Part shown: in pieces, positions 4,450-9,215 of the stretch
How the letters are laid out: every line of letters starts with the position of its first letter
How positions within the stretch are numbered: position 1 is the stretch's first letter
DNA from: Verrucomicrobiales bacterium
GTDB lineage: Bacteria > Verrucomicrobiota > Verrucomicrobiia > Verrucomicrobiales > DEV007
Length of the DNA: 46,709 bases
NCBI GenBank assembly: GCA_029233965.1
Contig: JARGOP010000020.1
Span: forward strand, 1 to 46,709
Direction: 5' to 3'
The notes under the pieces: model-generated
What the model was told of the DNA's origin: nothing
What the model saw: the letters and a program-made list of their open reading frames with translations, nothing else
Databases searched by the model: none
Position numbers and translations under genes: made by a program

Positions 4450-6044
4450 TTTTCAACCCGGTCGTTGCCATGCGAAATGTTTTACTGCTGCTCATTGGTT
4501 TCACAGGATTGATCCTCCCGCCGACCGTGCTCGGTGAAGAGGATGCTCTGCCTGACATTGTCATTATTTTGGCCGACGACATGGGCTGGGGCGATCCGCA
4601 GTGTTATGAGCCGGATTCAAAGATTCCGACTCCCAATCTGGATCGGCTCGCCGATGAAGGGATGCGCTTCACCGATGCCCATACGCCGTCTTCGGTCTGC
4701 ACCCCGACCCGATACACGCTCCTGACAGGGCGCTATTGCTGGCGGACATGGCTGGAGAAAGGGGTCCTCGACGGCTTCGGGCCTCCTCTCATTGGCGGCG
4801 GGGAAGACACGGTTGCGACCTTGCTGAAGCGGGCCGGCTACCGGACTGCCTGTGTTGGAAAGTGGCATCTCGGTATGCAGTGGCACGATCTCGAGGGCAA
4901 TCCTGTCGGAGAAAGGGGCGCGCAGGGGTTTCGGCCCGGTGACACGATGGATTTTGGTCAGGACCTGACAGGGGGACCGAACGACGTCGGCTTTGACTCC
5001 TATTTCGGGATCTCGGCTTCTCTCGACATGAGTCCCTACGTCTATCTTCGGGACCGCCGCGTCGAAACGCGGCCGACTGCGTGGCATGAGAAAATTGAGG
5101 ATACGATTTTTCTCAACGGCGTTTCCGGGGTGAAGTCACCGGGTTTTGACATTCACGATGTTCTTCCCCGCTTTGGTGAGGAAGCGGTCCGTGTGATTTC
5201 GAGTCATGCCGGGAAAGCCAATCCGCTCTTTCTCTATCTGCCGCTCAATTCTCCCCACTTGCCGGTATCCCCTTCCGCCGGAGTGAAGGGTAAGAGCGAG
5301 GCAGGAGACTACGGGGATTTCGTTTGGGAGACCGATGAAGTGGTCGGGCGTGTCCTCGACGCGCTGGACGAAACGGGCATGGCGGAAAATACACTCGTGC
5401 TCTTCACGAGTGACAATGGCGGTCTCTGGCATTGGTGGAACTTCCGGGCGGACGATGATGGCGGGAAAGCACCAACCACACCGAGAGGTGACTATGTCAG
5501 GGAGTTCGGGCATCAGAGCAATGCGGACTGGAGAGGAACCAAGGCCGATATCTACGAAGGCGGTCACCGGGTTCCCTTTCTGGTTCGTTGGCCCGCAAAG
5601 GTGAAAGGTGGCCGGGTCAGTGAAGCACTGGTCGAACTCACCGATGTCTTCGCGACGGTGGAAGAGATCACCGGGCTGAAAGGGAAAGAGACTTCCGGGA
5701 TGGACAGCTTTTCGATGCTTCCGGTCTTGCTCGGCGCGGCGGAGGAGGTGCGCCCGTTTTCGATCCATCATTCTCTCGCGGGAACATTTGCCCTGCGGCA
5801 AGGGCCCTGGAAAATGATCGAAGGTCGCGGGTCCGGTGGTTTTACCCGGCCCCGTCACGCCCGGGATTTCGACGATGACATCCCCGGCCAGCTCTACAAT
5901 CTCGATTCGGATTTTCAGGAGACAAAGAACCGGTGGGTGGATGAATCGAAGCGGGTCTCCGAAATGAAGTCTTTCCTCGAAACGGTGCGGGAAACTTCGG
6001 CGAGAGACGCGGCAAGCGGAAAATCGGTTGTTGGCAGGGATTGA
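4446..6044 (+). CDS. Secreted sulfatase (arylsulfatase family, Cys-type)
   Basis: This is a predicted sulfate ester hydrolase exported by an N-terminal signal (hydrophobic residues about 12-28). The active-site signature Cys85-Thr-Pro-Thr-Arg89 is the CxPxR form in which the cysteine is converted to formylglycine. Metal-binding aspartates are in LADDMGWGD (Asp44 and Asp45) and TSDNGG (Asp323, Asn324). GKWHLG (138-143) and SPHLP (269-273) supply the conserved lysine and histidines. At 532 residues the length is normal. The ATG at 4446 overlaps the upstream stop (ATGA), matching several couplings in this window; an alternative ATG at 4470 gives a shorter signal. It is a close paralogue of the sulfatase at 23684-25219, sharing RFTDAHTPS and TGRYCWRT. 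The substrate is unknown. Confidence 0.9.
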
Positions 6045-6079
6045 CTCAGGGCATCGCAGGGGGGAGTGATGGGGGAGTG

Positions 6080-7537
6080 ATGACCTCTCCTCCTTTTCAG
6101 AATCATTATGCAAAGCTTCCGGATCGCTTTTATGCGAGAGTGGATCCGGCAAAAGTTCCGACTCCGGAATGGATCCGTGTGAATGAGGCTCTCGCCGGTG
6201 AACTCGGGCTTGATCTCGAATGGTTGAAGTCCGGTGAGGGGCTTGCGATGTTGTCAGGGAATACCATGCCGGAGGGCGCGGAACCGATCGCCCAGGCTTA
6301 TGCGGGGCATCAATTTGGAGGATGGGTGCCTCAACTCGGGGATGGTCGTGCCATTCTTCTGGGGGAAGTCAAACACGAGGATGGCTCGCCCCGTGATCTT
6401 CAGCTCAAGGGTTCGGGGCGCACTCCGTTTTCGAGAGGCGGGGACGGGAAAGCCCCGCTGGGCCCGGTTCTCCGCGAATACATCGTGAGCGAAGCGATGG
6501 CTGCCCTCGGCGTCCCTACGACGAGGGCCCTCGCCGCCGTGACGACAGGGGAGTCGGTTTATCGGGAGGAGGCTCTGCCGGGCGCGGTTCTCACCCGTGT
6601 CGCCGCGAGCCATATCCGCGTGGGGACCTTTCAGTTTTTCTATGCGAGAGAGGACGTGGAGGGCTTGAAAACGCTCGCGGATTTTGTGATTGATCGTCAT
6701 TACCCGGAGGTGGGCGAAAGCGAAGCGCGCTATGAAGCGCTCCTGAAGGCGGTGATACGGAGACAGGCCTCACTCATCGCCCGCTGGATGAACCTCGGAT
6801 TTATTCATGGCGTCATGAACACGGATAACATGACGATTTCAGGGGAGACAATCGACTTTGGTCCCTGTGCGTTCATGGACGAGTTCCATCCGGAAACGGT
6901 CTTCAGTTCGATTGATCGACAGGGGCGCTATGCGTGGATCAATCAACCCGTCGCGGGAAACTGGAATCTGGCACGCTTTGCGGAAACGCTTCTGCCCCTG
7001 CTTTCAGACGACCGCGAGAAGGCGGTGGGAATCGCAGAGGGCTTCCTCCACGAGTTTGAGGAACTCTTCAATGATGCCTACTTCGACGGTTTCGCAGAGA
7101 AGCTGGGATTGCGCGGGGAAGCGGGAACGACGCGTCCCTTTGTTGAGAAGACGCTTGGGTTCATGGCGGAGTCATCTCTGGACTTCACTCAATTTTTCAC
7201 CGCCCTGACCCGATACGCCCGCGACGAAAACGTCTCGCATCTGCCTGAGCCGTTCAGCGCAAGCCCGGGGTCGGAGGAATGGCTTTCGGAGTGGAAGGGC
7301 CTGGCGGGCGATGAGGAAGAAACCCTTTCCCGGATGAAGGCGGCGAATCCGGTCCTCATTCCGCGAAACCATCGTGTCGAGGAAGCGATTCAGGCCGGAA
7401 TGAAAGGGGAATACTCCGTCTTTCATCGTCTCGTTGAGGCACTCTCCGATCCTTTCACGGAGCGCGGGGAATTCGAGGATCTCGAGGCACCGCCGGCCCC
7501 CGGGGAAAAGGTGACCGCCACCTTCTGCGGGACGTGA
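6080..7537 (+). CDS. selO: Protein adenylyltransferase SelO (YdiU family), cysteine form
   Basis: This is a pseudokinase-fold enzyme of the SelO/YdiU family, which transfers AMP from ATP to Ser/Thr/Tyr of target proteins and is linked to redox stress. The conserved family blocks are present: [17 protein letters not shown], then [22 protein letters not shown], then [11 protein letters not shown] followed by TIDFGP carrying the catalytic and metal-binding acidic residues. Length (485 residues) is normal. The third residue from the C-terminus is cysteine (Phe-Cys-Gly-Thr), the place held by selenocysteine in vertebrate SelO; here the codon is TGC, so it is the ordinary cysteine form. The ATG at 6080 was chosen to match the family N-terminus; a TTG at 6041 overlapping the upstream stop is possible. 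It has no signal peptide and should be cytoplasmic. Confidence 0.92.
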
Positions 7538-8489: not shown

Positions 8490-9215
8490 TCAGTGATTTG
8501 CGACGACTTTCCTGAGGGTTGACTCCATCGATGCCGGAAGGCCATAGGCCGGAAGCTCTTCGCGGAAAGTTTCCCAGTTGCGCTCCATCCCCGAGCCGAG
8601 GAAGGCATTGAGGCGCGTTGCCACTGCCGAGTCGGCGAGCGACTTTTCATCGGGATAGGTCTCTTCCAGAAATGCCCTCAGGTCGTGGTAGCGCGTCAGG
8701 TAGTAACTCTGATGGTAGCGCTCCGCGTAGGTGAATTCGGTCACCGGCTCGAGATGAGTCTGAATGGACTCCACCGCGACGCCATGCCGTTCCGATTCAG
8801 CCTGAAACGAGGCACGGGCTATCGCCTCCTGCGCGTCGGAGCGGTAGAAGAGAACGTTTCGATACTGGCTCGAAGGATGATTCCGCAGGCTGTGATGACT
8901 GTCCCAGAAACAGGAGAGTACTTGTTGAAAAGTGATGAGATCAGGATCGAAATCGATCGAGATTACCTCGGTATGATCGCCCATGGACTGATAGGTCGGG
9001 GAAGCGGTCCTGCCACCGCAGTATCCGGCCCTGGTCCTCAATACTCCTGGAAGGCTTCCGAACTCGGAATCCGGTCCCCAGAATCATCCCACTCCGAAGG
9101 TGGCAGTTTCGTAGGCCCGCTTCGAAGTTGTTTTGTCGAAGGGAAGCCGGTCAGCGGAGAGGGTCCCGTCTTCAATCGCAAGAGGACCGGCTTGAGTTCT
9201 GGATGAATGGAACAT
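8490..9215 (-). CDS. msrA: Peptide methionine sulfoxide reductase MsrA, probable selenoprotein (Sec44, TGA at 9084-9086)
   Basis: This enzyme reduces methionine-S-sulfoxide in proteins. Reading from the ATG at 9215, the frame runs through one TGA at codon 44 (9086-9084) to the true stop at 8490. The TGA replaces the catalytic cysteine: the residues before it are YETATFGVG and those after are FWGPDSEFG, which together form the MsrA active-site block GCFWG with only the cysteine changed. The rest of the domain follows without a break: LPGVLRTRAGYCGG, TYQSMGDHTEV, SSQYRNVLF and FTYAERYHQSYYL. A SECIS-like hairpin (9045-9083) begins right after the TGA. Conventional calling would keep only a fragment starting at TTG 9041, lacking the active site. 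Total length is 241 residues. There is no signal peptide. The start lies 10 bases downstream of the lipoprotein hydrolase stop, suggesting cotranscription. Confidence 0.9.
9045..9083 (-). promoter_or_regulatory. Bacterial SECIS-like hairpin in msrA
   Basis: On the minus strand directly after the TGA, TTCTGG (9083-9078) pairs with CCAGGA (9050-9045). Above an asymmetric internal loop (GGACC against TT), GGATTCCG (9072-9065) pairs with CGGAAGCC (9060-9053) with a single A/G mismatch. The apical loop is AGTT (9064-9061), with G as second base, 21 bases after the TGA. Bacterial SECIS elements recognised by SelB have this geometry, with a G among the first loop bases about 16-37 bases past the TGA. 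Folding was judged by eye. Confidence 0.7.

What the first reader, a model, noticed from the sequence alone, without database searches (positions are those of the whole stretch)
8490..9215. MsrA gene with an in-frame TGA at the catalytic cysteine: selenocysteine MsrA
Directly seen: on the minus strand the frame from ATG 9215 to the stop at 8490 has one TGA (9086-9084). Before it the protein reads YETATFGVG and after it FWGPDSEFG, so the TGA stands exactly where MsrA has its catalytic cysteine (GCFWG). All later MsrA blocks follow in the same frame. A hairpin with a G in the apical loop sits 21 bases downstream. From known biology: selenocysteine MsrA occurs in a few bacteria and algae and is far more active than cysteine forms. 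A standard annotation would report only a fragment with no active site starting at 9041.
Basis: partly seen in the sequence, partly recalled or inferred. Interest (0 to 1): 0.93.

Follow-up and report, generated by a model that had tools for sequence, protein, structure and literature searches.

The report
Selenocysteine-containing protein-repair enzyme (MsrA)
This gene, which automatic annotation would cut short at a stop signal, almost certainly encodes a methionine-repair enzyme (MsrA) with selenium in its active site; the bacterium carries the genes needed to read that signal as selenocysteine, and the enzyme belongs to an already known selenoprotein family.

Summary
The minus-strand frame 9215-8490 holds one internal TGA (9086-9084), at the catalytic position of MsrA (GUFWG). 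Reading it as selenocysteine (Sec) is strongly supported. (1) The genome (Verrucomicrobiales) has selA, selB and a selD that itself carries an in-frame TGA, all on one contig, plus the first 53 nt of tRNA-Sec, cut off by a contig end. (2) In the genome collection, 78 of 78 readable relatives, from six or more phyla, have TGA at exactly this codon. (3) The nearest relative (80% identical after the TGA) is under purifying selection before and after it (dN/dS 0.04 and 0.07), with synonymous sites saturated. (4) The hairpin after the TGA meets the published bacterial SECIS rules, and its stem is kept by linked changes at synonymous codon positions. (5) The best solved match is the Clostridium oremlandii selenoprotein MsrA over nearly the full length, including its C-terminal helical domain. 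This is therefore a new member of a known kind. A possible twist, not tested: every protein of the main verrucomicrobial clade carries a cysteine at position 66 and/or near 109, whereas the Clostridium enzyme has none; these could resolve the oxidised Sec. No protein evidence was available.

The parts
8490..9215 (-). msrA coding sequence read through one in-frame TGA (241 residues plus terminal TGA)
   Evidence: dN/dS 0.035 before and 0.07 after the TGA against the nearest relative
9084..9086 (-). Sec codon UGA, residue 44, catalytic position of the GUFWG motif
   Evidence: TGA in 78 of 78 readable homologues
9045..9083 (-). bacterial SECIS hairpin, extended form +1..+39 after UGA; upper stem +15..+28 (9069-9056), apical loop AGUU +20..+23 (9064-9061), loop G at 9063
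   Evidence: fits the model quoted in PMC13188914
8691..9110 (-). MsrA catalytic domain, residues 36-175, with U44 F45 W46 Y75 E83 Q117 Y118 H168
8493..8690 (-). C-terminal helical domain, residues about 176-241, as in the C. oremlandii selenoprotein MsrA
   Evidence: phmmer match to 4u66 over 36-230; predicted helices 177-186, 190-194, 197-206, 214-224, 228-239; Foldseek 4lwj
9018..9020 (-). Cys66 (GYCGG), candidate resolving cysteine (inference only)

Best explanation
The gene encodes a selenocysteine form of peptide-methionine (S)-S-oxide reductase A of the Clostridium oremlandii type: a catalytic domain followed by a C-terminal helical domain. A hairpin starting directly after UGA codon 44 recruits SelB carrying Sec-tRNA-Sec, so the ribosome inserts Sec instead of stopping. 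Sec44 attacks the sulfoxide of oxidised methionine, releases methionine and is left as a selenenic acid, which is then re-reduced by a thiol donor (glutaredoxin, thioredoxin or a nearby cysteine of the enzyme). Shown here: the conserved TGA, the conserved hairpin, the decoding genes, the conserved active-site residues and the fold (predicted). Inferred from relatives: Sec insertion in the cell, enzyme activity and the reducing partner.
For: Frame and TGA. msrA family matches. selB over cut-off, selA 506 bits, selD 376 bits with its own in-frame TGA in CAGU, all on contig C131; the first 53 nt of tRNA-Sec, 100% identical to the complete gene of relative G006 and including anticodon TCA, at the last base of contig C22. 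TGA conserved in the readable close relatives among 95 genomes and in 78 of 78 readable loci of a wider scan (the two sets overlap). dN/dS 0.035 before and 0.07 after the TGA. Hairpin: loop GUU invariant, stem kept by linked changes (with residue-7 codon GAG the Gly codon is GGA in 32 of 34; with CAG or CGG it is GGG in 45 of 45), with 3 supported, up to 7, independent switches on a tree. Synonymous change is depressed in codons +1..+13 (1 of 12 against 92 of 176 elsewhere). Genomes with this MsrA hold SelB: 16 of 16 counting contig-edge fragments, against 28 of 79 others.
Against: No protein or 75Se evidence. The complete tRNA-Sec gene is not in the assembly. The hairpin of the window sequence alone is not significant against synonymous shuffles (p 0.14); the signal comes from the family. 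Rows of the alignment are related, so the very small Fisher values overstate independence; the tree-based pair test is consistent but too small for significance.
Confidence: 0.96

Rival explanations
1. Pseudogene or sequencing error: a Cys codon (TGC/TGT) mutated or was misread to TGA.
For: A single in-frame stop in a draft assembly is a common artefact (general knowledge).
Against: The same TGA in independent genomes of six or more phyla, 78 of 78; purifying selection on both sides of it; synonymous constraint at the hairpin.
Confidence: 0.01
2. The TGA is a true stop and the downstream ORF (TTG 9041) is an independent gene.
For: An ORF of 183 aa starts at TTG 9041.
Against: The upstream 43 codons and the bases between the TGA and 9041 are conserved as protein and as hairpin; the shorter product would lack the catalytic residue and the FWG motif.
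Confidence: 0.01
3. UGA is reassigned genome-wide to Trp or Gly.
For: An in-frame TGA exists also in selD.
Against: UGA ends several window genes, including this one and the SelO gene, and selA, selB and selD are present.
Confidence: 0.01
4. Sec is inserted, but the verrucomicrobial enzyme recycles Sec through Cys66 and/or a Cys near 109, unlike the cysteine-free Clostridium enzyme (a refinement of the best explanation, not an alternative to it).
For: 49 of 49 main-clade verrucomicrobial proteins have Cys66 and/or a Cys at 108-110, against 4 of 28 from other phyla; CoMsrA has no Cys (PMC4479559).
Against: No distances could be measured (model coordinates not available); the difference may be inherited chance within one clade; some members have only one of the two positions.
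Confidence: 0.25

Closest known systems
Clostridium oremlandii (sp. OhILAs) selenoprotein MsrA, PDB 4lwj/4lwk/4lwl/4lwm/4u66
   Same: Sec at the catalytic position of GUFWG; same catalytic residues; C-terminal helical domain; best sequence and fold match (33% identity, TM 0.75/0.88)
   Different: CoMsrA contains no Cys and is 209 residues long (PMC4479559); this protein has Cys66 and Cys102 and a 35-residue N-terminal extension. The host is a verrucomicrobium, not a clostridium.
Bacterial selenoprotein MsrA family as reviewed in PMC13188914 (GUFWG/H motif)
   Same: Same motif; both the FWG and FWH variants occur among the relatives
   Different: The papers read here do not mention Verrucomicrobiota for this protein; that is an absence in a limited library.
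Ordinary Cys-MsrA (E. coli, M. tuberculosis)
   Same: Catalytic domain and active-site residues
   Different: Cys instead of Sec; resolving Cys residues; no helical domain. This genome also has a separate Cys-type MsrA (G000:C3:15086-15553, 39% identity, no stop inside).

Membership tests
Selenoprotein MsrA (C. [quoted passage not shown]
   PMSR 2e-35; F45 W46 Y75 E83 Q117 Y118 H168 invariant in A2, matching the residues listed in PMC4333827
Selenoprotein MsrA (C. oremlandii type) | In-frame UGA at the catalytic position | tested here: met
Selenoprotein MsrA (C. oremlandii type) | C-terminal helical domain | tested here: met
Selenoprotein MsrA (C. oremlandii type) | Bacterial SECIS: 3-9 nt loop, 4-16 bp upper stem, G in the first two loop positions, 16-37 nt from UGA, MFE <= -7.5 (PMC13188914) | tested here: met
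   loop AGUU, 5 bp upper stem, G second, loop begins at +20, -15.9 kcal/mol over the first 45 nt
Selenoprotein MsrA (C. oremlandii type) | Host decodes Sec: selA, selB, selD, tRNA-Sec | tested here: met
   tRNA-Sec 5' 53 nt only, at a contig end
Selenoprotein MsrA (C. oremlandii type) | 1-Cys type: no other Cys, reduced by glutaredoxin (a property of the one studied enzyme, not of the family as a whole) | tested here: not met
   Cys66 and Cys102 present; the reductant cannot be tested
Selenoprotein MsrA (C. oremlandii type) | Sec present in the protein and needed for full activity | not testable with these tools
   needs 75Se labelling, mass spectrometry and assay

The most novel reading that the evidence does not exclude
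Verrucomicrobial Sec-MsrAs form a mechanistic variant in which a cysteine at position 66 (next to the conserved Tyr of GYxGG) and/or near position 109 resolves the oxidised Sec as a selenenylsulfide, replacing the resolving cysteines of ordinary MsrA and the glutaredoxin-only route of the Clostridium enzyme.
Probability: 0.25. Interest if true: 0.5.

Novelty: new member of a known kind. Interest (0 to 1): 0.36.

Why it matters
Standard annotation would miss the active site in this whole group of genes. The set of 78 loci extends Sec-MsrA through Verrucomicrobiales (including the cultured Roseibacillus persicicus and R. ishigakijimensis) and other phyla. It also gives a clear case of SECIS evolution, in which the stem moves by one base and is kept through synonymous codon changes. 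If the extra cysteines do resolve Sec, it would show how Sec enzymes adapt to other reductants.

Tried and rejected
The RF01852 search gave no tRNA-Sec over cut-off in this genome; the top hits were tRNA-Ser, -Leu, -Tyr and -Gly. ARAGORN and a cmscan of the selB contig also found none; a DNA search with the relative's gene then found the truncated copy. SelO as an operon partner was rejected: it is convergent and kept near msrA only in the nearest relatives. C-terminal Sec in the neighbouring SelO was considered and set aside: its Cys stands three residues from an ordinary TGA stop. Rfam found nothing in the window.

Full report
Observation. The minus-strand frame from ATG 9215 to the TGA at 8492-8490 contains a single internal TGA at 9086-9084. 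Read as residue U44 it gives YETATFGVG-U-FWGPDSEFG, the MsrA active-site motif, and the rest of the protein follows in the same frame. Pfam PMSR matches residues 37-174 at 2e-35 and TIGR00401 msrA is just over its cut-off.

Decoding genes. The window's genome G000 (4.83 Mb, 96% complete) has selB on contig C131. On the same contig lie selA (506 bits) and selD (376 bits). The selD gene carries its own in-frame TGA, in the motif CAGU-ASKL. The Rfam tRNA-Sec model found nothing over its cut-off, and the top hits it gave were other tRNAs. A search with the complete tRNA-Sec of the nearest relative G006 (ARAGORN: tRNA-SeC, anticodon TCA) found its first 53 nt, 100% identical and including the anticodon, ending at the last base of contig C22. 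The most likely reading is that the gene is present but cut by an assembly gap.

Conservation. Among 95 related genomes, 16 have a close MsrA homologue of this type (44-80% identity). In the 15 whose contigs reach the active site, all have TGA at this codon. All 16 have SelB, counting fragments at contig ends, against 28 of 79 other genomes (Fisher 8e-7; 3e-5 with the strict cut-off; these genomes are related, so this is only indicative). A scan of one genome per species found 222 relatives; of the best 80 kept, 78 can be read at the codon and all 78 have TGA. This set overlaps with the first. They come from Verrucomicrobiota, Chloroflexota, Nitrospirota, Thermodesulfobacteriota, Planctomycetota, Synergistota and others. 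Against the nearest relative, synonymous sites are close to saturated (about 68% different) while dN/dS is 0.035 before the TGA and 0.07 after it. This speaks against decay, error and an independent downstream gene. UGA is an ordinary stop in this genome, ending several window genes including this one.

SECIS. Bases +1 to +39 after the TGA fold into a long hairpin (-15.9 kcal/mol for the first 45 nt) whose upper part is UUCCG-AGUU-CGGAA. It meets the published bacterial SECIS constraints: loop size, G in the first two loop positions followed by U, and spacing (PMC13188914). Across 79 sequences the loop GUU is invariant. Residue 7 after Sec is E, Q or R, always written GAG, CAG or CGG. With GAG the stem uses one register and the next Gly codon is GGA in 32 of 34; with CAG or CGG the stem shifts by one base and the Gly codon is GGG in 45 of 45; the Phe codon is TTT only with CAG (15 of 20) and TTC in all 59 others. 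These are linked changes at synonymous positions. On a tree the E versus Q/R switch happened at least 3 and up to 7 times, and the Gly codon followed in nearly all supported pairs; three pairs are too few for a significant sign test. Between the window and its nearest relative, synonymous change is depressed in codons +1 to +13 (1 of 12 against 92 of 176 elsewhere, p 0.005). For the window sequence alone, hairpin stability is not exceptional against synonymous shuffles (p 0.14), but 51 of 79 family members are below 0.05.

Fold and family. The best solved match is the selenoprotein MsrA of Clostridium oremlandii, over residues 36-230, including the C-terminal helical domain that other MsrA structures lack. 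The AlphaFold model (mean pLDDT 90) has the extra C-terminal helices and Foldseek ranks the CoMsrA structures first. The active-site residues listed for CoMsrA are conserved. In CoMsrA the Sec form is 20-fold more active than the Cys form and is recycled by glutaredoxin (PMC4479559). Bacterial selenoprotein MsrA with the GUFWG/H motif is an established family (PMC13188914). The finding is thus a new member of a known kind.

What may be different. CoMsrA has no cysteine. In the main verrucomicrobial clade every one of 49 proteins has Cys66 (in GYCGG), a Cys at 108-110, or both; only 4 of 28 from other phyla do. The window protein has Cys66 (and a Cys102 that is not conserved). A role as resolving residue is an inference; distances could not be measured.

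Mechanism. Shown: UGA, hairpin, decoding genes, conserved active site, predicted fold. Inferred from studied relatives: SelB-dependent Sec insertion, reduction of methionine-S-sulfoxide by Sec44, regeneration by a thiol donor. Missing: any protein-level evidence.

Noticed in passing
G000:C22:21201-21253, G000:C146:56-85; G006:C141:4996-5046 and C55:14398-14448; G041:C113, C156, C120: tRNA-Sec looks like an insertion site of mobile elements in this group: extra 3'-half copies of the tRNA occur in G006 and G041 and contigs break inside the gene, which hides tRNA-Sec from standard searches. The elements themselves were not examined.
   Followed up: partly
L047:5171-14014 (G000:C131): Sec gene cluster selD (with TGA) - selA - four-gene phosphonate-type ABC transporter - selB; the transporter inside the sel cluster may import a selenium compound (guess). 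No paper on this was found in one search.
   Followed up: partly
window 6041-7537 (+): A SelO (YdiU, protein adenylyltransferase) gene lies convergently two genes away; its C terminus is the Cys form (FCGT, TGA stop). The pairing with msrA is kept only in the nearest relatives.
   Followed up: partly
L189, L190, L195-L197, L199, L200, L203, L204 (Nitrospirota), C-terminal ends: Nitrospirota Sec-MsrAs often carry a Cys close to the C terminus (such as ..SCPL or ..TCPVPK), another possible resolving position.
   Followed up: no
window 8490-9215, residues 29-111: NCBIfam model NF041383 (VPGUxxT thioredoxin-like selenoprotein, type 2) matches the MsrA active-site region at 3e-10, hinting that this family contains an MsrA-like part.
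   Followed up: no
L021, L022, L026 (upstream of the Sec codon): Some relatives have a hydrophobic, signal-like N terminus (such as MRNAFLLILGIGCLAGLQ), suggesting export or membrane anchoring of some Sec-MsrAs.
   Followed up: no
G050:C28:7414-8004: A second, more distant MsrA homologue (39% identity) with an in-frame TGA in the same genome as a close homologue.
   Followed up: no
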